A stretch of 64,000 nucleotides of DNA, from the NCBI GenBank assembly GCA_007026445.1, contig VDMD01000005.1, positions 62,001-126,000 of the forward strand. The letters run 5' to 3'. The stretch's first letter is position 1. Each line of letters starts with the position of its first letter. Under the pieces are notes generated by a model. That model did not search any database, was not told where the DNA came from, and saw only the letters and a list, made by a program, of their open reading frames with translations. Origin of the DNA: Schizophyllum amplum (taxonomy: Eukaryota; Basidiomycota; Agaricomycetes; Agaricales; Schizophyllaceae). Both the position numbers and the translations under genes were made by a program. Below are positions 1,979-62,815 of the stretch, in pieces.

Positions 1979-3360
1979 GGAGAGCATGCAGGGAGAGGGC
2001 ACACTATCACTCAGCAATACAGTTGGCAATGGTTTTCTGTTGTGGCATCGTGCCGATGGTTTTCTTTGCGATGATAACGCGCGGATGGTTTTCTTTGCGA
2101 TGACAACGCGCGGATGGTTTTTCTTTTGGCAACATGCCGACGGGGCGCGGTTTGTCGGTCGTACACAGCTGGCCATCAACTTACGGTGCGCCCGAGGGGA
2201 ATGTTTACAGTTTCCCCGTGAGTTGCCTTCGGTTTCACCGCAAGCTGCCCGCGGGGAGCTTGCAAGCTGAGCATCAATTTTGATCATCATCCGCGCTCGT
2301 GGATCATTGATACTACCCAAATATGGTACATACGTAGATCAATGGCAGCGCTGGTCAATCGTCGGTTGCAGCATCGTGCGGCGTCGGCTTCGTTGAGCAG
2401 GGTAACCTCATTCATTGCTAGCACATATAGTGATTCATAAAGTATACGGGACATGTAGGGCTGGGGAAAAGGTGCACAGGGAGGGTCGGGAACTCAGGCC
2501 GCCTCAGGGTGTGCGTCGTCATGCAGCGCATTGCTCCGCGTCCGGCGCGACCGCGTCTCTAGACGTGCATTGTACTCTCAGCGCAACAAAGGAATACATT
2601 ACGCTATTCACGAGTGAAGAGACTCTTCTTGACAAGGTCAGCATGTTGCAGGGACTCAGTTGGAATGCAACGCACCGTTGACAAAAGCAGTCGCCGACGT
2701 CAACACCCGGAACTCGACGCTGAGCGGGGCATGTCTGTCGGCTATGATGGGCCACAGCAGTGTCGAGAAGGCGTATGCAGCCAACAGTGATATACACGGG
2801 TCACCGAGAGGCGGACGAGTGGGCAGCTATGGCGCCTCGCTGTCAAAGGACTTAGAGAAAAAAGTACGAAGTCAAGCTGAAATCCTGCTGAAATCATACG
2901 TGTCGATCGAGTTTACCGGCCCAGCCTGGGCCCAGTTTACGGGCTGCCCGAGGGGAAACCCACTGTTTCTCCGGCCTTGCGGGCAGACTGCAAGCTCCCC
3001 TCGGTGCGCCCGAGAGCAGGATTGATGCTCGGTTTACAGTCTCCCCGCGGGCAGACTACGGTTAAACCGTGGGCAGACCGCAGTCTGCCCACAGATTTTT
3101 CAGTTCACGGGCGCACCGCAAGCTTGCCTCTGGCAGTGTATCCTGCAGGCCTAGTCGCTTGCTCCTGCCGGTGAACCAACGGTGAACGGCTTGAACATTG
3201 GGGGCTCGGTTTCATATTCTCTGATGATGTACGTCGTGCCACGATGGAGAACCTACGCGGCCACCAGATACATATGCGAGGACTGCATTTCGGAAAATTG
3301 CATGAGCGCTTTACTGCATACTACTTGAGTATTCTACATTATAAATACCATCAAATGAGA
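1979..3360. other. Intergenic region with simple tandem and palindromic repeats, no supported gene
   Basis: About 1.4 kb downstream of VPS4. Positions 2023-2140 hold about four units of a ~30-bp repeat built around GATGGTTTTCTTTGCGATG. Positions 2180-2270 and 2940-3130 hold diverged GC-rich units related to GCCCGAGGGGAAAC and GCGGGCAGACT, some arranged as small palindromes. Open frames here are short and have no recognisable protein features. Confidence 0.6.
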
Positions 3361-39984: not shown

Positions 39985-40960
39985 CTGCCGTTCCTTGCGG
40001 GCTAGTCTGCTTCCAAATGCGCCCCTGTAACCGGAACGGGGCGAATTGATCTCACGTGAGCTTTTCCACGCTCGGGGACGTCTCTTTCGGGAAGGCTGCC
40101 TCCCTAATAAGGTGTTATCTCCGTGAGCGAATAAACCAAGTCCTTTCTGGCACTGGTCCTTTCCTCTACGCCCCGCCACGGCGCCAACACGGCGCCACCA
40201 CGAGAAATCACAGCTTTGGCGAGTATGAGCATTGGCACACTGATGCTGTCCAAGCTCTCGAGGATTGCTTGGCACCTGTAGCGCCAATTACGCTCGTCCC
40301 GCGGTGGCAGCCCCGGCTACTCTGGCAACCTGCTCACCGAGAGCGAAGCGCATCCTTAGAAGAGCGAGGCGGGCGGCGAGGCTATCTTCCAGCGGCTTCT
40401 CGCATCGGGCACGAAGACTTACAAGCACTGACCATAAGCAAGAGATGAATAACAGCGATCACTTGCAGCATGCCCGCTGCCAGTGGTGCAATCGCTGAGC
40501 TTACAGCGGCATGGAGGGCTATTCGTTTGGACAGAGTGTACCTCATGTATATACTCTGTCTATATGGGAAACACCGTACTTGGGCCCGTGCTGGAGGTCC
40601 CGGACATGGATCTAGAACTTATCCTGGCAAGCAAACTCAAGATCAACTCGACAGTGAACCTCCTGCCCTTGACACAAAGAGATGTGGGGTGCACTTATGC
40701 CGAGAAGTGGCTCTAGAGTCCTTACCGTACTCTGCCCAAGGTATGCGAGGAGCCGACGATGGGCTGTCCACTGTGAACTTGTACTTGTACTTGGTTACTA
40801 GTCGTTCTCGGGGATAACACCTTTTTCGGGAGGTAGCCTTCCAAAAAGAGATGTTCCCGAGCGTGGAAAACCTCACGTGACATCAATTCGCCCCGTTCCG
40901 GTTTCCAGGGCGCGTTTGGAAGCAGACGTTCCCTGAACGTCTGCCTTGGGAGACTACTTG
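39985..40960. repeat. Inverted repeat pair (~150 bp arms, ~0.97 kb overall)
   Basis: The segment at about 39990-40140 recurs in reverse complement at about 40800-40955. Shared blocks include GTCTGCTTCCAAA, CCGGAACGGGGCGAATTGAT, TTTTCCACGCTCGGG and AAGGTGTTAT. Identity looks like roughly 80-90 percent. The 660-bp centre has no coding signal. This fits a foldback-type or long-TIR non-autonomous transposon, now diverged. Confidence 0.65.
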
Positions 40961-41343: not shown

Positions 41344-43183
41344 ATGTCTGTACTACCACCCTTCCTCCTCCTCTTCTTCGCGCTCGCGACCACCCGCTTC
41401 GCCGCCGCCGCCGACCGCAACGTGACCTTGGATGACAACAGCGCGGATATCCAGTACTCGGGCGACTGGACGACGTCTGCGGAGAGCGAACTGGACTATG
41501 GAGGGACACACCAGCTGACGGAGGACGCATCTGCGACCGCGAAGCTGACCTTTACCGGTGCGTGGCACGCGCGGAGGGAGAGAGGCACGTGTGCTGACGC
41601 GCGCGGCGCGCTATATCAGGCACTGCTGTCTATCTCATGAGCCCCAAGTGGCCGTACACGGTGAACACAGCCGTGTCCGTCGACGGAGGCGGGGTCACCC
41701 TTGTTGATCTTGTTGATCACAATACCCCGAGCCAAGGTGGGGGATCGGAGACACTACAGTCGGCTGTCGTCTGGGCGGATACAGGGCTCGACAACGGCGA
41801 GCACACTCTCACGATCAGTGTGGGCGGCGGACAACAATTCGCTATCGTGGATGCAATTGTGTGAGTATCCACCGAGAGTCGGTAGAGCGGTCACTGATAT
41901 GTTCAATCTGCAGTTACACGGTCCATGAAGAGGAAACGACTTCTTCCGCCTCCAGTTCGTCCACAGAGTCATCATCACATACCAGCACCCAGACATCGCA
42001 AACAAGTACCCAGACAACCTCTTCAGAGTCGCAGACCGCCACATCAGCCTCCTCCGCGTCCGGCGATGGCAAGTCGAATGCCGGTACGATCGCCGCCGCC
42101 GTTACTGTCGCCGTTGTCGGCATGCTCGCCGTCGCGCTCACCTTCTTCTGCCTCAACCGCCGCAAGAAGAAGCAGCAGGCCGCGCAGCAGCAGCTCCAGC
42201 ACGCCCCCATGATTGAGAAGTATCCGTTTGACGCCGGCTACGGGGCGCGGGCCGAGTCCAATCACTTTGGCGCCGTCTCGCCTACGTCCACGTCCTCGCG
42301 TACCTTCATAGGCTCCCAGGGCTTCCCGTCGCCGTCTGAGGGCCCGAAGTACGCGCATTACCCTCAGTTCTCGCCAACGACGCCCGCGCATGAGCCGATA
42401 CCAGACGTAACGTCATCCTCAGCGGCACCGCATCCCTACGCGGTCGCGCCTCCGTCGCCAGCCCCACTCACGACAGCGCAGCTGCAGGAGGCCTTCCGTA
42501 CGCGCACTGTGCAGCCTGATGCGGCGACCTTGGGAGGCTGGCCAGCGCCGCCGCAGGGCCCGCAGCCTCCACTTGCGCCGAGCCGGTATGGACAAGAGTC
42601 GTACACATACACGCAAGATTCGCACCCGTACGCGCAGGACCCGAACGCGTACGCGCAAGACTCGCACGCCTATGGGCAAGACCAGCACGCATACAGCCAA
42701 TATCAGCCTGCGTATGGGCAAGCCCAAAGCTCGCACTCCACGGCGCCGAACGCGTACGTCACGCCGCCCTCGGGGGTGCACCGCCTGTCGACGATCACCG
42801 AGCTTTCGTCCGCACCGTCACTACAGCCCTCGATGCAGTCGCTTCAGGCCGTCGCCGCGCAGCCGCTGCAACCGCCCGCGGCCTTCGCCACAGACCCGTA
42901 CCGTCTGTCCGCCGCATCTTCCGAGCACGACTTGCCATACCTCTCCGCGAGCCCGACGCGGCAATCATTCCGCTTCTCTGGAGCGAGCAATGTGGGCGGT
43001 GACCCGTACGGGAGCGGCATGGCCGGGGATGCGTACGCGCGGTACACGGGCGCCCCGCCCAGCTCATCTGGAGAGCATTCGGATACGAGCTACGCGAGCG
43101 GGGTCCCGCAAGATGCGGTAGACCCTGTGCCAACGCCGAAGCGTACGCACTCCATTAAGCGCGTCCCTCCACCGGTGGCGTGA
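41344..43183 (+). CDS. Type I surface membrane protein with Ser/Thr stalk and one TM, 574 aa
   Basis: Exons 41344-41557, 41620-41860 and 41914-43183 sum to 1,725 nt with no frame break. Signal peptide MSVLPPFLLLFFALATTRFA, an extracellular domain of ~150 residues rich in beta strands (NVTLDDNSADIQYSGDW, GGTHQLTEDASATAKLTF, AVVWADTGLDNGEHTLTISV) like the ligand-binding jelly-roll domains common in Agaricomycete surface proteins, a Ser/Thr stalk (probably O-glycosylated), one helix AGTIAAAVTVAVVGMLAVAL, a stop-transfer RRKKK, and a ~370-residue cytosolic Pro/Ser/Tyr tail. The tail has a Tyr/Gln/Asp repeat array (SYTYTQDSHPYAQDPNAYAQ) at 42600-42730. A sensor or adhesion role is plausible but not shown. 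Confidence 0.78.
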
Positions 43184-43702
43184 GTGGCCAAGAACGCGGC
43201 ACGCTCGTGAGCAACTACAGCAGTGACGATCGCGACGAGTGACGAACCCCTCCACGTCCATCTCGCCCTCGCAGTTATCTACACGCTTTCGCGCTATTCG
43301 CGCATTCATACCAACGCACGCAACACATACACATACTTGCGTTTTCTTGTCTTCGCATCGTCCTGGCTGACACTTGTTTTGCTTAGCTTACTTATAACTT
43401 ATTTGTTTCTAGCATACATACCATGCGGGCTGCGCCGCGCTGCTGTTGGGGTTGGGCGCGGACTGTCTGTCCGGGTGGCGGTGTTACGTCTGGGTCACGG
43501 TGTTTGCTTTGCTTCGACTGTTGTTTACTCGACGGGGTTTTTGGGATGTTTACTTCTTCGACATGCGGGTACACTCGTTTTCACATCTATCAACATGTAC
43601 AGTAGCTATAGCGAGTGAGTCGATAGGTCCCGTAGGCCTCAGCGAGCCTGTAGGCTGGGTGCCAGATCGATTGTTACCCTTCGACGATTGTAATGATACC
43701 CT
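43184..43702. other. Intergenic, convergent
   Basis: Between the surface-protein stop and the 3' half of the broken F-box gene. Nothing recognised. Confidence 0.4.
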
Positions 43703-44019
43703 TCAAATCGACCGTACATACAATCCCTTCTGCCTGCGCGGTATGATTCGGTCCTCCTCAAACCATATGTCCGTGATCTCCTCAACCGCAGAAACCGTCA
43801 CATCGTCGATGTGACGGCGACGGTCCACGGCATGTCCGCTGCCACCTCTGCCTGCTCCCTCTCAAAACCAGCTTTGGATACGATATCGAATCGGTCTCCC
43901 GCCCATGGGCCGCGATCCGACGTCACGTCGGGCTCTCGCAAGACAAAGCGAGGTGGCTCGCCATCAGGACTTGGAAGCACCTCGGAGTGGTATGGACTGT
44001 AGCGGGACCACCACCTGAT
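43703..44019 (-). pseudogene. 3' half of an F-box-family gene, separated from its 5' half by an inversion
   Basis: Reading from 44019 to 43703 on the minus strand: ...WWSRYSPYHSEVLPSPDGEP, then GPWAGDRFDIVSKAGFE and (after one missing base near 43800) VEEITDIWFEEDRI. GxWAGDRFDIV and the E(I/V)xxIW segment are the C-terminal signature of the paralogs at 50575-51705 and 61676-62815. The sequence starts abruptly at the border of the 433-bp element. It begins with ATCAGGTG, the same 8 bases that end the 5' half at 47103-47110. The joined region would read ...ALERIRWWSRYSPY, matching ...VMARICWASSPE of the intact paralog. Confidence 0.85.
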
Positions 44020-44452
44020 AGGACCCCGGGCAATGCGCCAAGAGGTCCGATCCAAAAAGGCGGCTTTTTGGACATTCCCGTCGCACGGTTTTTTGCCAGT
44101 TTGGGGGTCTTTCAGTCGCATTGAGATCGGACACGCACTTTCAAGCCAAATTCCGTCGCACTATGGATCGGACATGGCCAGCGACAGGTCACCCCAAGCC
44201 CTGGACCTTTGCCGCGGAAGGGTTGCGCCCACCCATTGTTGGTCTGGCGTAGCGAGAAGCAGCCGGAATCCCCGAAGACCGTCGCATTATGGATCGAACC
44301 TGGCTCTCGACGCTCTCACGCGGCGCACGTTGGATCAGACCTTCGGCACGCAAACTGACCTATCCGGCGCATTGGGATCGGGCCTCGGCGGTTTCTGGGG
44401 GTCCAATCCGGCGCACAAGGATCGGACATGTAGGCGTATTGCCCGGGGTCCT
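44020..44452 (+). mobile_element. Element B, copy 1: 433-bp TIR element (hAT-like MITE)
   Basis: Ends are AGGACCCCGGGCAATGCGCC and, inverted, the same with one mismatch. Same length as copy 2 (47111-47543), which lies in opposite orientation. Left flank is CACCTGAT (44012-44019), right flank GACGTGCC (44453-44460): these do not match each other, but each matches a flank of the other copy (see finding). An 8-bp duplication fits the hAT superfamily; the element has no transposase. It contains repeated motifs such as GGATCGGACATG and TCCGGCGCA. Confidence 0.9.
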
Positions 44453-44498
44453 GACGTGCCTCGTTCGGCCCACGTCGACGGTCAACTCGAGTGGCTTT

Positions 44499-45280
44499 CA
44501 TCTGGAAGAGCGTTTTGGCTATGGGCTCCTATGATAGCAGACCATTTTCTATATAGTGCCATATAGTGCGTATAGAGCGTATAGAGCTGTAGAGCGTATA
44601 GACTGCTCGAAATTGAAATCGGGTGTTCGGGCCAAATCGCCGGCGCGCATCATCCCAGCAACAGCGCAGCGCGAAGCGCCATCTTCTGCATCCAAAAATT
44701 ACTCTAAGTCCACTCTTGTCTTGCACTTTCACGACCCTTCGGTCCACAGAAGTCAAGGCCTCTAGGTGCGTACTCCCAGTACTAAGCTAATACGTCTCTT
44801 TGAACTGACTTCCCTTCAGTCTTCAGCTTCCAGGCCTGCTGGTCCTTCTGAGTCGCGGTCACTCTACACAGCCAGTGTCTCGCCTGCCCGTTCGAATGAT
44901 CTGAACGGGCTACTCCGTCGTGGATTTATCACTCGATGTATCGTCCCGATCGTCATTCTCCCGCGGGCCGCCGCGCCATAGCTCTCTCCCCGCCGTTCCC
45001 TTAGTTGCTAGCTACACCTGTACATTATCCGTAGAATTCATGGATGTCTACCACTATGAGCTGCCCATAAACCTGCGTTCGCGCCTGCGCTCATGCCCAA
45101 CGGCGCGGCTGGGCTGCTCTGTTGCGTACCGAATGATCCCCCGACGTGAAACCATCAAAAAAGCTATTTGAAAAAGTTCTATAGGCTCTATATAGGCGTA
45201 TATAGAGGCGAGCAGTCTATGGCTCCTACGGCTCTATACGCCCTATATAGAGCCCCATAGCCAGACTGCACTTCCAGATG
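44499..45280 (+). mobile_element. Element A, copy 1: 782-bp TIR element
   Basis: Starts CATCTGGAAG and ends CTTCCAGATG (perfect 10-bp inverted ends); the similarity extends inward to about 31 bp (TGGCTATGGGGCTC-type inner part). Subterminal zones carry many TATAGAGCG/CTATATAG units. The second copy at 46128-46909 has the same length and, as far as I can see, the same sequence. No transposase. A target duplication of standard length could not be found. It lies in the upstream region of the broken F-box gene. Confidence 0.85.
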
Positions 45281-45390
45281 TTTTATCTTCACCCCTCAAG
45301 GTATGTAGATGGATGTAGCAGCCCTCATCCCTGTCCTCTGTTGTCTGACGAAGGCTCAACCACGGTAACCCTAACAAGGCGGCAGCAAGC

Positions 45391-47110
45391 ATGGGGTCTT
45401 TTGGTATATCTTGAATCTCGACTCCCGTACGTCGTGCTACATAGGAAAAGTACGCCGCTTTCCCTATGAAGACCAAGAAGATTTTCATGCCATGATTTGC
45501 CCCTTCCCTGTGTACCGGACGACCCTTCGATTCAAGAGCGACGGGGTCGATGCTCAATACCCGTCAACCAATACCAACTCTACCAACCTCTCTGCAGACG
45601 CCTGGTTCGTGTCTCTTCCAGCTCGATACCTAAGTATAACTCATGCAAATGGCTTTCAGTTTGTTCAATACATTGCCGTACGACCTACTCGACATAATCA
45701 TCGGATATCTCGAGGACTATCTCGATATCCTTTGCATTTCCTTCACGTGCCAAGCAGCTTGGTACGCGGGGCTGCGCTACATCTATGCGTTTGTGGAACC
45801 TTGGGCGAAGGGATCGGCAGGCCTTCGTGTTATTTTCGTCGGGGACGATGCCATGCCGGGGCTGCACGACATACCGCGAGGCCTTGAGCTGACCAAAGAA
45901 GAGGAATATATCATGGCGCACAGGTGCAACATTGGCCGATATGATCCCGACGCAATCTGCCCCTGCACCGAAGGCGCACAGTGCGAGTTTGAAGCGGCGG
46001 TCTCAACACGTTAGCCGATCGCTCCTTCGAGGAGGTTTTCCCTTTGGATCTTCGGCAGAGCCTTATCACCCGTCTCGCTGAACGGTATAAGGACGGGCGG
46101 ACCACCGACAGCAATGAACTGGCTTTCCATCTGGAAGAGCGTTTTGGCTATGGGCTCCTATGATAGCAGACCATTTTCTATATAGTGCCATATAGTGCGT
46201 ATAGAGCGTATAGAGCTGTAGAGCGTATAGACTGCTCGAAATTGAAATCGGGTGTTCGGGCCAAATCGCCGGCGCGCATCATCCCAGCAACAGCGCAGCG
46301 CGAAGCGCCATCTTCTGCATCCAAAAATTACTCTAAGTCCACTCTTGTCTTGCACTTTCACGACCCTTCGGTCCACAGAAGTCAAGGCCTCTAGGTGCGT
46401 ACTCCCAGTACTAAGCTAATACGTCTCTTTGAACTGACTTCCCTTCAGTCTTCAGCTTCCAGGCCTGCTGGTCCTTCTGAGTCGCGGTCACTCTACACAG
46501 CCAGTGTCTCGCCTGCCCGTTCGAATGATCTGAACGGGCTACTCCGTCGTGGATTTATCACTCGATGTATCGTCCCGATCGTCATTCTCCCGCGGGCCGC
46601 CGCGCCATAGCTCTCTCCCCGCCGTTCCCTTAGTTGCTAGCTACACCTGTACATTATCCGTAGAATTCATGGATGTCTACCACTATGAGCTGCCCATAAA
46701 CCTGCGTTCGCGCCTGCGCTCATGCCCAACGGCGCGGCTGGGCTGCTCTGTTGCGTACCGAATGATCCCCCGACGTGAAACCATCAAAAAAGCTATTTGA
46801 AAAAGTTCTATAGGCTCTATATAGGCGTATATAGAGGCGAGCAGTCTATGGCTCCTACGGCTCTATACGCCCTATATAGAGCCCCATAGCCAGACTGCAC
46901 TTCCAGATGTCCTCGAGAAGATGATTCGGAGAGTCATTCCAAACCATGAGCAGCGCCCCACCAACGACGAAGATCTCGTGTTACGCAATCTATCGCGTAG
47001 GCTCTACGTCCGCGGGACGCCTTCGCTGCCTTCCAACGGAAGTACAAGGGTATGTTTTTCGATGACATTCCCCCGCGCTTGGCGTCCGCCGCTTTGGAGA
47101 GGATCAGGTG
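45391..47110 (+). pseudogene. 5' half of an F-box-family gene, broken by element A and by an inversion
   Basis: ATG at 45391 gives a first exon with WYILNLDSRTSCYIGKVRR, parallel to WILLDMDARRKEWLGKLGE of the intact paralog (one base missing near 45400). The second exon holds the F-box NTLPYDLLDIIIGYLEDYLD, then GLRVIFVGDDAMPGLHDIPR (compare HRLICVGDYLEQDDLPPNI). After a missing base near 46010 it continues LITRLAERYKDGRTTDSNEL to 46127, where element A copy 2 is inserted. It resumes at 46910 with LEKMIRRVIPNHEQRPTNDE, LVLRNLSRRLYVR and PPRLASAALERIR, then stops dead at element B copy 2. The remaining C-terminus is on the other strand at 43703-44019. Cannot encode a full protein as arranged. 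Confidence 0.87.
46128..46909 (+). mobile_element. Element A, copy 2: 782-bp TIR element inside the F-box gene
   Basis: Same ends (CATCTGGAAG...CTTCCAGATG), length and orientation as copy 1 at 44499-45280. The short frames inside translate identically in both copies, so they have hardly diverged. Left flank CTGGCTTTC, right flank TCCTCGAGAAG. Both copies share TGGCTTTC immediately to the left, either target preference or an unrecognised part of the element. Confidence 0.87.
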
Positions 47111-47543
47111 AGGACCCCGGGCAATACGCCTACATGTCCGATCCTTGTGCGCCGGATTGGACCCCCAGAAACCGCCGAGGCCCGATCCCAATGCGCCGGA
47201 TAGGTCAGTTTGCGTGCCGAAGGTCTGATCCAACGTGCGCCGCGTGAGAGCGTCGAGAGCCAGGTTCGATCCATAATGCGACGGTCTTCGGGGATTCCGG
47301 CTGCTTCTCGCTACGCCAGACCAACAATGGGTGGGCGCAACCCTTCCGCGGCAAAGGTCCAGGGCTTGGGGTGACCTGTCGCTGGCCATGTCCGATCCAT
47401 AGTGCGACGGAATTTGGCTTGAAAGTGCGTGTCCGATCTCAATGCGACTGAAAGACCCCCAAACTGGCAAAAAACCGTGCGACGGGAATGTCCAAAAAGC
47501 CGCCTTTTGGGATCGGACCTCTTGGCGCATTGCCCGGGGTCCT
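47111..47543 (-). mobile_element. Element B, copy 2: 433-bp TIR element, inverted relative to copy 1
   Basis: Reverse complement of 44020-44452, same length, near identical. Left flank ATCAGGTG (47103-47110), right flank GGCACGTC (47544-47551). Each flank is the reverse complement of a flank of copy 1 (CACCTGAT and GACGTGCC), not of the other side of this copy. Confidence 0.9.
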
Positions 47544-47722
47544 GGCACGTCTTCGAGTCTTTGATTCTCCGACCGGCAGATCCCGCGACGATGTAAGCAC
47601 GGTGTTGGCACTCTTCCTCTGCTTGGAGCACAAGCGCCTCTGTGTATTCTATAGTGAGCTACTCATAACCTGAGTGTAAAAATCTCTATATCGTGGACCA
47701 AAATTTAGTCTTCTGATCACAT

Positions 47723-49700
47723 ATGTTAGGAGGTACCTACTGCAGCTTATGGGACGCATCTCCTCGCCTTCCTTTGGAGCTGCTCGAACGCATCGTCGAC
47801 CTGGTTCCCGACTTAAAGACCTGCTCCCAGTGCGCCTTCGTCTGCCGCGCCCTTCTCCGGCGCTGTCGCCACCGCGTCTTCCGGCAAATCAGGATCCTCG
47901 GTCCAGCGTCTCTGCGTAACCTGACCGCCGTCCTCACTCATCCATCCTGCACCGTCAAGTCCCATGTCCGTCGATTCGAACTTCGAGGACATTTACATTA
48001 CAAGCCAGATGAAGTGTCACTGGATGTGCTGCAGCGCCTGCCCAATTTGAGCACGCTGCGCGTCAAGATCATGCCGAGCGTGTACACCCAGCATCTATTC
48101 AACGACACCAACGAACATATCCGGCCTGACAACTCTAACCCTCGACCATGTCGGGTTCGTGACATTTGCCGAATTTGTCGCTGTGGTCACGGTTCTCCCA
48201 TCTCTGCGCCATCTCTCTCTGCAGTATATATTAATTGACTCGGAGACCGACGACAACACTCCATCAGCGCTAAAGGGAGAGATACTGTAGACCTGCTGTC
48301 GTGTCTTTGCTATCCCAGGCTCGACAACTGCGGCACCTAGTGTTGTGCAGGGCAGGGTAAGGCAGGGTTTTGAGGGCTTGGGCAGGGTTTCGTGGGGCAG
48401 GGTATCACTCTGAGCTGAGCCCTAGCCCTCTGCCCTCTTCTGCCCTGGCCCTCAGCTGCCCGGGGCAGGGCAGCGGGCCGCCGAGGGCTTTTCGGCATTT
48501 GCCGGTACGGCGGCGGTAGGACTTTCGGGGACTTAAAAAACATGCATACATTATCTGGTAGCACTATTAATATGTTTCCTTGCACGAAGTAGACTCATCG
48601 AGTATAGAGGTGGCGGGCAGACTCGGCAGCGAGTCGAAGCAAGAAATCTAGGTGACTCATCAAAAGTCGGTCCGATTACCGGTGCTCTTATGGCCACGCA
48701 ACACCAAACAGTTCGCGCGCTGAGCGCGCCTCTTATGAATGCGAGGCCAAAACCGTGCATCCGCACTCAAAATTTCGATTTTATGGACCCCCAGATCATT
48801 CAATGTGCTAGGCTACGGTGCCCTGGGCTTTAGGGCAGGGCAGCGGGCTGAAATTCTCAGGCCCTGGCCCCCCGGCCCTCTCAAGCCCTGACCGGGCAGA
48901 GGGCAGGGTAGGGCTTTTGAGGGCAGGGTCGGGCGGGCAGCGGGCATTTGCCCTTGCCCGCACAACACTAGCGGCACCATAGGAAAGCTTTTCCTCTTCT
49001 GGCTGATGATCCTGCCTCATCACCCGCCAATCACTCATGTTGACCTATATCTTCATATCTTCGGAGACCCAGCCTTCCTATCCCTCAGCCGCGACTGCCG
49101 GCGCAGGTGCATGCCCACTCTCAAGTCGATGCGCATCAACCCGGGCTCCAAGAGCTTCCCCGGAGAAGACTGTAAGCGACTCTGATTAGGTGCTACGTTC
49201 GATCGAGCTCAGCAAGCCTTTTAGATACATCACTAGATTTGACGCAGTTCAAATCCATACAGTCATTCACGATCGAACCCGCAGATCCAGCGGACTACCA
49301 GGGCATTTTCTCCGTGACACGCCGCTTCCTCAGCCTCGTTCTCTCTGCCCTAGGCGCGCCAGAACTTCGCAAGCTCACCGTCATCTTCGTACTGAACAGA
49401 GCATCCGTGGTAGCCACCCTAGATGCTCACATGAACTGGGCGGCGTTAGGCAATTGTATCGATCGCCATTCGTTGCTGGAGGACTCGGAGGCGAAGTTCG
49501 TGCTTTGCGGGTCTCAGTTTTTCCGGCAGAACACTGCCATCCATACAATCGAGAGCCAGATACGCAACCTGCTTCCCCACGCAGATGCGAGCGGCAAACT
49601 CCACGTACTCTTCCGCGCGCCCAACACTGACAGCAGAGCGCTGATGATAACGCAGGCTGGCCATGAGTACGATGGGGCCCAAAATGAACCGCCTTCCTGA
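47723..49700 (+). pseudogene. F-box/LRR-type gene interrupted by a 633-bp hAT-like element
   Basis: Starts MLGGTYCSLWDASPRLPLEL, with the F-box PRLPLELLERIVDLVPDLK and CAFVCRALLRRCRHRVFRQI, then Leu-rich segments (ALTLDHVGFVTFAEF, VTVLPSLRHLSLQYIL) after a frame slip near 48125. Element C sits at 48338-48970. The reading then resumes with GKLFLFWLMILPHHPPITHV and DLYLHIFGDPAFLSLSRDC, an intron with GTAAGC donor near 49170, and the typical C-terminal part (FTIEPADPADYQGIFSVTRR, LGAPELRKLTVIFVLNRASV, HTIESQIRNLLPHADASGKL) to 49698. This is a common mushroom F-box/LRR arrangement. The element either inactivates the gene or is spliced out if its ends act as splice sites, which I cannot see. Confidence 0.75.
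48338..48970 (+). mobile_element. Element C: 633-bp hAT-like MITE with perfect 8-bp target duplication
   Basis: Left end TAGTGTTGTGCAGGGCA, right end the inverted TAGTGTTGTGCGGGCA. It is flanked on both sides by GCGGCACC (48330-48337 and 48971-48978). Outer ~200 bp on each side are GC-rich, full of GGGCAGGG / CCCTGCCC units that can fold back on each other; the centre (48540-48800) is ordinary sequence. TAG/CAG-type ends and an 8-bp duplication are the hAT hallmarks. No coding capacity. Confidence 0.92.
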
Positions 49701-61675: not shown

Positions 61676-62815
61676 ATGGGGCAATACTGGATTCTACTCG
61701 ACATGGACGCCCGCCGCAAAGAGTGGTTGGGCAAGCTGGGCGAGAGCTTCTTCGGTATGAATGACGAGCTTTGCAAGATACTCTGCCGCGTGCCTATCCC
61801 AGCCTTTACCTTGCATCCGCAAGAGAAACCAGAATTCGAACTATGCAATGGTGCTGGGAAGAATAGGTTTGCTATCAGTTTTTGCTTCGCTCTCATGAAG
61901 CTAATATAATAACGAACCGACAGCGCGCTCATGAGGCTTCCCGCGGAGCTTATGGGCCTTGTGTTCGGCTTCCTCGCAGATGACGGTGACGTGATCGACA
62001 TGCTCTGGCTGGCTATGACTTGCCGCCAATGCTCGCGCGTCGGAGAAGCCTTTGTCAGACGCGGCCTGTTCGAGCAATACAGCGCCTCCGCCGACCACCG
62101 CCTCATTTGTGTTGGTGACTATTTGGAACAAGACGACCTTCCACCCAATATAGAGCTCTACGAGGACGAAGCAGAGGAGCTCGAAGGGAGCGTTGACGAC
62201 GAGGACGGTGAACAATGTGATGCGACTCTGTATCAGCTCCAGTGTAAAGAAGGGTTTCAAGACGACATCGACATCCATACAAAACTCCGTAGCAAGCTTC
62301 CGCACGATGACTGGCTCCTGCCTACGGTTCATTATCTCTCCACGTCAAGGATTCTACGCAGGCTCGTCCCCAAGGCGCCATGTCATTGTGGATGCGACGT
62401 GCCTCTCGTCCTCCGAAACCTCTCACGGAACGAATACGTCCGCAGCCAGGCCATGCTTGACCTCCACAAGACGGTCACGCCGGCGAATCCTGCGGACTGG
62501 TTGCCTTACCTCGGTGACGCCGTCATGGCGCGCATCTGCTGGGCGTCCTCCCCGGAAACAAGTCTCAACTACGAAGGTCCTATACAAGTTCATCGAGGGG
62601 TGTGGGCGGGCGACCGTTTCGATATCGTACCGGAGGAGTTCTTCGAGAAGGAGCGTCAAGCGGCGGAGCAGCCCTGGACTGATGTTTCCGTCGAAGTCGC
62701 CTCTGAAGTTGAGGCGATCTGGGTTGCGGAAGAGTATCTCGAGCGCAATGCGCTGCCGACCGACGGCACACCGTCCACCGCAACGAACCCAGAATCAGTG
62801 ACGGAATGTGCTTGA
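61676..62815 (+). CDS. F-box-family protein with N-terminal MGQYW module, 360 aa, intact
   Basis: Exons 61676-61866 and 61924-62815 give 1,083 nt without any break, the best model for this family. Residues 1-64: MGQYWILLDMDARRKEWLGK and LGESFFGMNDELCKILCRVP, an unknown N-terminal module. Then the F-box LMRLPAELMGLVFGFLADDG with DMLWLAMTCRQCSRVG, HRLICVGDYLEQDDLPPNI, an acidic loop, LVLRNLSRNEYVR, DAVMARICWASSPE, GVWAGDRFDIVPEEFFEKE and VASEVEAIWVAEEYLER. The donor of the single intron is GTTTGC. F-box proteins act as substrate adaptors of SCF ligases; partner unknown. Confidence 0.85.

What the first reader, a model, noticed from the sequence alone, without database searches (positions are those of the whole stretch)
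43703..47551. Inversion between two inverted MITE copies split an F-box gene; the 8-bp target duplications prove it
Element B occurs twice in opposite orientation (44020-44452, 47111-47543). Copy 1 is flanked by CACCTGAT and GACGTGCC; copy 2 by ATCAGGTG and GGCACGTC. Neither copy has matching flanks, but flipping the 44453-47110 segment gives CACCTGAT on both sides of one copy and GGCACGTC on both sides of the other. The same flip joins ...ALERIR (plus strand, ending 47110) to WWSRYSPYH (minus strand, starting 44011) and restores a reading frame aligned with the intact paralog at 61676. All pieces agree: two independent insertions, then ectopic recombination between them.
Basis: partly seen in the sequence, partly recalled or inferred. 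Interest (0 to 1): 0.9.

Follow-up and report, generated by a model that had tools for sequence, protein, structure and literature searches.

The report
Mushroom gene split by transposon-bounded inversion
In the genome of a mushroom, a 2.7-kb piece of DNA between two copies of a small transposon appears to have been turned round, cutting a decaying gene in two; an intact version of the same gene found elsewhere shows the original order, and the event is a clear example of a known kind of rearrangement.

Summary
Two 433-bp elements (B1 44020-44452, B2 47111-47543) lie inverted, 432/433 identical, with exactly exchanged 8-bp flanks. Of 19 other two-ended copies or close kin examined, 16 have exact 8-bp target duplications, one 10-bp, two none. 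Former adjacency of the gene halves is independently confirmed: database protein P0001 matches the flipped-back pieces 95/95 residues in one frame through the junction and 33/33 beyond a later frame lesion. The organism is very probably Schizophyllum amplum.

Two claims go too far. The duplications do not prove two independent insertions plus ectopic recombination: hybrid-element insertion from a single B gives the same sequence, as PMC2775673 notes for the general case, and its discriminator, chimeric copies, has no power here. "Independent" is doubtful: 0.002-0.03 such close pairs are expected by chance. The gene also carries another transposon and about four small frame lesions, so the inversion need not have killed it.

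Odds: crossover between two locally related copies 0.55; hybrid-element insertion 0.3; assembly flip 0.08; independent arrivals plus crossover 0.05.

The parts
44020..44452 (+). MITE B, copy 1 (433 bp, imperfect 34-bp terminal inverted repeats beginning AGGACCCCGGGCAAT, six internal repeated motifs)
   Evidence: no private substitution among the 6 young copies; no Pfam match
47111..47543 (-). MITE B, copy 2, inverted, 1 private substitution
44012..44019 (+). target 1, CACCTGAT, left of B1
   Evidence: partner at 47103-47110
47103..47110 (+). target 1 inverted, ATCAGGTG, left of B2
44453..44460 (+). target 2 inverted, GACGTGCC, right of B1
47544..47551 (+). target 2, GGCACGTC, right of B2
44453..47110 (.). 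inverted segment, 2,658 bp; the 834-bp stretch of it that was queried (45291-46124) has one match in the assembly
45391..45604 (+). split F-box-like gene, exon 1 (start codon out of frame with the rest)
   Evidence: tblastn of P0001; intron 45605-45659 GT..AG
45660..47110 (+). split gene, exon 2 proximal part, interrupted by A2; small frame lesions near 45993 and 47016
43703..44019 (-). split gene, exon 2 distal part and stop; frame lesion near 43805 (short palindromic insertion)
44499..45280 (+). MITE A, copy 1 (782 bp, CATCTGGAAG..CTTCCAGATG, 2-bp target duplication TT), upstream of the split gene
46128..46909 (+). MITE A, copy 2 (identical 782/782, 2-bp target duplication TC), inside exon 2
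61676..62815 (+). relative of the split gene used for comparison (exon 2, 61931-62815, is an open frame)

Best explanation
A 2,658-bp segment was inverted by a crossover between two inverted copies of a young non-autonomous transposon (MITE B). One copy had inserted into exon 2 of an F-box-like gene (target ATCAGGTG), the other in the spacer upstream of it (target GGCACGTC); the second was probably a local hop of the first, not an independent arrival. The crossover exchanged the inner target duplications and left the 3' part of the gene outside and the rest inside, in opposite orientations. Shown: structure, exchanged duplications, 8-bp duplications across the family, former adjacency of the gene halves. 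Inferred: that the step was homologous recombination and not hybrid-element insertion, and that one copy came from the other. The structural core (B-bounded inversion, halves once adjacent) I hold at about 0.9; the figure below is for the whole statement.
For: Exchanged 8-bp flanks. 16 of 19 other two-ended copies or close kin have exact 8-bp duplications, and among the 18 copies whose flanks were compared only the window pair is exchanged. P0001 matches 95/95 residues in one frame through the unflipped junction, plus 33/33 after the next frame lesion, and has no insertion there. A two-insertions-plus-crossover model rebuilds window 43000-48500 with 1 difference, the B1/B2 substitution. PMC8225341 (passage) describes inverted, usually non-matching duplications as the mark of this mechanism. 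Rate argument: at the S. commune rate of 2.04e-11 per base per division (abstract of PMC7403608), one substitution in the 866 bp of the two copies takes as long as about 57 inversions at a crossover rate of 1e-6 per division, or 0.6 at 1e-8 (both crossover rates are recalled or assumed). In a yeast inverted-repeat reporter about half of the selected recombinants are inverted (PMC6334234, passage). The A family suggests local hopping at this spot: two identical copies 847 bp apart, of 5 full-length matches in the genome.
Against: The same product follows from one B insertion plus hybrid-element insertion. The chimeric pattern that decided for ectopic recombination in Galileo cannot be seen here: one site differs. 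B1 and B2 share no derived base that is theirs alone, and two copies at unrelated places (L013, L014) also differ by only 1, so near-identity does not show local kinship. No uninverted chromosome carrying both B copies was found; the only close relative, P0001, is a protein from a 1,297-bp contig of source 'lgn', organism not given, and lacks B. Target 2 has no independent support.
Confidence: 0.55

Rival explanations
1. Hybrid-element insertion (sister-chromatid alternative transposition): transposase paired the left end of B on one sister chromatid with the right end of B on the other and inserted this hybrid into a nearby target on one of them. One step from a single B gives the inversion, the second copy and the exchanged duplications together.
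For: String models of this route, starting from one B at either site, rebuild the window with 1 difference. PMC2775673 (section 10 part 1 read) calls the outcome 'strikingly similar' and says the copies are identical under this model; here they are 432/433 identical. It needs one insertion only, which fits the low chance of two copies this close. Alternative transposition making inversions is documented for Ac, and non-standard transposition rearrangements are cited there for impala of Fusarium (PMC8225341, passages).
Against: No direct trace. Near-identity and closeness are equally expected from a local hop followed by crossover, and two inverted copies would be expected to recombine afterwards in any case.
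Confidence: 0.3
2. Assembly flip: the genome carries two normally inserted inverted B copies, and the assembler turned the segment between the 433-bp repeats.
For: Would give exactly this sequence; no reads were available. P0001 does not exclude it because it lacks B.
Against: The window lies in a 1.36-Mb contig with no N in the window. The 834-bp interior stretch and the 1,412-bp left flank each have one match, and the first 783 bases of the right flank match nowhere else. Contigs up to 4.7 Mb suggest long reads; the technology is not known to me.
Confidence: 0.08
3. Two independent arrivals of B from elsewhere, then crossover.
For: Same flank evidence. B1 and B2 share no derived base that other members of their subfamily lack, so a common local origin is not shown. 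Two other copies share the same 8-bp target at different places, so insertion may not be uniform.
Against: Expected number of pairs this close is 0.0019 for 6 copies, 0.019 for 18, 0.034 for 24, uniform insertion assumed.
Confidence: 0.05

Closest known systems
Galileo-bounded inversion 2z3 of Drosophila buzzatii (PMC2775673)
   Same: Two inverted copies of one cut-and-paste element at the two breakpoints, exchanged target duplications, other transposons nearby
   Different: There the copies are chimeric, which decided for ectopic recombination; here they are almost identical and the question stays open. There the inversion is cytologically visible and its breakpoints lie between genes; here it is 2.66 kb and one breakpoint lies in an exon
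Ac/fAc alternative-transposition inversions of maize (PMC8225341)
   Same: 8-bp duplications, element ends at both junctions
   Different: Those carry one matching new duplication at the junctions and lose the DNA between the two elements; here both duplications are paired and no loss is needed to explain the sequence
8-bp-duplication DNA transposons of fungi (hAT, Zisupton; PMC12730594)
   Same: 8-bp duplications, terminal inverted repeats
   Different: No transposase found in B, and its ends AGGACCCC could not be tied to either superfamily here
PlavakaB elements (PMC12730594)
   Same: Element A has ends CATC..GATG and 2-bp duplications; PlavakaB is CATCA..TGATG with 2 or 3 bp
   Different: Fifth base differs (CATCT); no transposase was looked for beyond open frames (longest 88 codons), so membership is only suggested

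Membership tests
Transposon-bounded inversion with exchanged target duplications | Two copies of one element, inverted, at the two breakpoints | tested here: met
Transposon-bounded inversion with exchanged target duplications | Flanking duplications exchanged and inverted | tested here: met
Transposon-bounded inversion with exchanged target duplications | Uninverted relative with a single copy of each target | tested here: inconclusive
   Target 1: P0001 runs through the site without insert, protein only. Target 2: no relative found
Ectopic recombination (NAHR) | Copies chimeric relative to their unrecombined parents | tested here: inconclusive
   one variable site between the copies
Hybrid-element insertion | The two flanking copies identical at origin | tested here: inconclusive
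   432/433; also expected after a local hop
MITE | Short, terminal inverted repeats, target duplications, several copies | tested here: met
   433 bp, imperfect 34-bp repeats, 16 of 19 exact 8-bp duplications
MITE | No coding capacity | tested here: inconclusive
   No Pfam match. But 7 of 18 copies have a frame without stop over the whole element: 5 of the 6 young ones and L019 in the same frame, L018 in another; 85 of 2000 shuffles have such a frame
KDZ or hAT superfamily | Transposase of that superfamily in an element with the same ends | tested here: inconclusive
   A transposase-like gene (my reading) follows a B-like end at L037, but no Pfam match and no second end found; of 77 KDZ matches listed none lies within 40 kb of a listed B-like end. 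hAT transposase was not searched for
F-box proteins | F-box domain over the curated cut-off | tested here: inconclusive
   F-box-like PF12937: P0001 13.9 and P0002 14.1 bits against cut-off 24.3; the S. commune relative P0004 reaches 30.8; the relative at 61931 and the window's first piece none at E 0.1

The most novel reading that the evidence does not exclude
A non-autonomous 433-bp MITE of a mushroom made the inversion, its own second copy and the split gene in one step, by hybrid-end transposition between sister chromatids from a single insertion; the exchanged duplications usually read as ectopic recombination would then be a transposase product.
Probability: 0.3. Interest if true: 0.5.

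Novelty: new member of a known kind. Interest (0 to 1): 0.35.

Why it matters
It is an unusually clean natural case: both duplications are intact, no loss at either breakpoint is needed to explain the sequence, and an independent intact gene records the order before the event at one of the two sites. It also shows a common over-reading: exchanged target duplications show that a transposon family bounded an inversion, not which mechanism did it. The related species S. commune has the highest polymorphism known (abstract of PMC7403608); if S. amplum is similar, strains with none, one or two B copies may exist and would let the mechanisms be told apart.

Tried and rejected
Composite transposon (44020-47543 moved as a unit): rejected, outer flanks CACCTGAT and GGCACGTC do not match. 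Second haplotype of the locus in the assembly: not found with the three stretches queried. Coding role for B: no Pfam match, but a whole-length open frame exists in 7 of 18 copies, so it is doubted, not excluded. Reading frame across target 2: the unflipped site lies in the spacer between two genes; open frames span it but none looked convincing and none was searched, so target 2 has no protein test. Autonomous partner of B: left open. Partner for the copies without duplications: L017 shares no flank with the other 17 compared; L022, L042 and L043 were not in that comparison, their flanks were read by eye. Papers: searches showed 15 of 69, 15 of 372, 6 of 6, 6 of 6, 12 of 33, 12 of 184 and 8 of 2,399 papers; none listed was, by title and start of abstract, about this locus or a MITE inversion in Schizophyllum, but the lists are capped and the library is open-access only. 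Crossover rates for inverted repeats: passages found, no number for repeats of this length.

In one search I also printed two predicted flank patterns as typed constants; that is not a test. The test is.

Full report
WHERE IT IS. The window is contig C255, 62001-126000, of a 49.65-Mb assembly in 309 contigs. C255 is 1,361,241 bases long, the length given for the longest contig of P0002, which NCBI names as a Schizophyllum amplum protein; the P0002 sequence is the one read from locus L049 on C255. I take the organism to be S. amplum, an agaric.

THE OBSERVATION. B1 and B2 are 433 bp each, inverted, and differ at one base; their flanks are exchanged as described. To see what normal flanks look like I used the other family members. 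One search listed 48 matches, many of them short matches between the ends; I fetched 20 places, all the other listed places except C157:250169. Three (L023, L024, L028) show one end or a fragment. Of the 17 with both ends, 14 have exact 8-bp duplications, L010 a 10-bp one, L017 and L022 none. Two further two-ended elements with B-like ends (L042, L043) also have exact 8-bp duplications (read by eye). So 16 of 19. Six more places show a single B-like end (L037-L041, L044) and are not counted. Among 18 copies compared (the window pair and 16 others) only the window pair shares flanks in the exchanged way; L011 and L012 have the same 8-bp target at different places.

THE GENE. With the relative at 61.9 kb as query, the joined sequence gives a match through the junction. 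The stronger test is a sequence that I did not make: a database search with the read-through protein returned P0001, 391 residues, 88% identical over 98% of the query. Block by block, window against P0001: 59/70, 98/111, 39/44, 33/35, then 31/31 (residues 264-294), 66/66 (293-358, overlapping by two because the target is duplicated) and 33/33 (359-391). So 95/95 residues, 264-358, lie in one frame through the junction, which is the 8-bp target at residues 293-295, and 33/33 follow in another frame after a lesion. P0001 has neither B nor A2. It comes from source 'lgn' on a 1,297-bp contig and lacks the intron, so it may be a transcript; its organism is not given. A second search with P0001 found no other close relative: the next best is 33% identical. 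The step from about 88% (229/260) to 100% (128/128) identity is unexplained.

STATE OF THE GENE. Besides the inversion it carries element A2 in exon 2 and about four small frame lesions: at the start of exon 1 (or another start codon is used), near 45993, near 47016 and near 43805, the last a short palindromic insertion. Intact members of the family exist on C255 and C223. I cannot order the lesions, and base-calling errors could account for some. So the inversion split the gene; whether it inactivated it is open. The F-box label is weak by Pfam for this gene (13.9 bits, cut-off 24.3) and better for a S. commune relative (30.8 bits).

WHAT THE DUPLICATIONS PROVE. I built three routes from one ancestral order: two insertions then crossover; one insertion at target 2 then hybrid-element insertion at target 1; and the reverse. 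All three give window 43000-48500 with a single difference, the B1/B2 substitution. The Galileo paper says the same of the general case and used chimeric copies to decide (PMC2775673: passages, and section 10 part 1). Here that test has no power: among the six young copies B1 has no private substitution and B2 one. Maize reversed-ends inversions carry one matching new duplication and lose the DNA between the elements (PMC8225341, passages), and do not fit.

HOW LIKELY IS EACH ROUTE. Two B copies this close are expected 0.0019 (6 copies), 0.019 (18) or 0.034 (24) times under uniform insertion, so a local hop or a one-step event is favoured over independent arrival. Against this, B1 and B2 share no private base, and L013 and L014, on different contigs, are as alike as they are. 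The A family behaves alike: two identical copies 847 bp apart out of five full-length matches, expected 0.0007 pairs; the spot may simply tolerate or attract insertions. Between local hop plus crossover and hybrid-element insertion I lean to crossover, because near-identical inverted repeats should recombine faster than they mutate: 57 inversions per substitution at 1e-6 per division, 0.6 at 1e-8. The mutation rate is from S. commune (PMC7403608, abstract and outline seen); the crossover rates are recalled or assumed. If the higher rate holds, the segment may flip back and forth and its present orientation would be a snapshot.

CLASSIFICATION OF THE ELEMENTS. B: 8-bp duplications fit hAT or Zisupton-type elements (PMC12730594, passages), but no transposase could be linked to it. 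A: ends CATC..GATG and 2-bp duplications (TT, TC, CT, AT at four of five full-length copies; the right end of L032 was not read) resemble PlavakaB as described in the same paper.

VERDICT. Well supported, of a known kind.

Noticed in passing
window 48338-48970: A 633-bp hAT-like element (ends TAGTGTTGTGC, exact 8-bp duplication GCGGCACC; a 637-bp match at C113 is 99% identical) lies just after the open frame of the next F-box-like gene (47723-48238): five short-transposon insertions of three families within 5 kb.
   Followed up: partly
window 43805-43830: Short palindromic insertion in the split gene relative to P0001, with inverted homology to the adjacent bases; perhaps repair filler or a footprint.
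   Followed up: partly
P0001 against window 45393-47108 and 43706-44019: Identity steps from about 88% (229/260) to 100% (128/128) two thirds of the way along the protein.
   Followed up: no
window 44492-44498 and 46120-46126: Both A copies are preceded by TGGCTTT (directly, or with one base between), although their surroundings otherwise differ.
   Followed up: no
window 40005-40927 and 2224-3075: Two further inverted-repeat pairs with 129-bp (87%) and 62-bp (77%) arms.
   Followed up: no
L010, L011, L012: One B copy has a 10-bp duplication; two B copies at different loci share the target GGTGAGAC.
   Followed up: no
L023: A 129-bp right-end fragment of B, 100% identical to the window copy, cut off abruptly.
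   Followed up: no
L037 (C62:10100-20000) and L038: A B-like end AGGACCCCGAGCAACGC leads into a transposase-like gene without Pfam match in L037; the same end and flank occur in L038.
   Followed up: partly
whole assembly: 77 matches to the KDZ transposase family PF18758.
   Followed up: no
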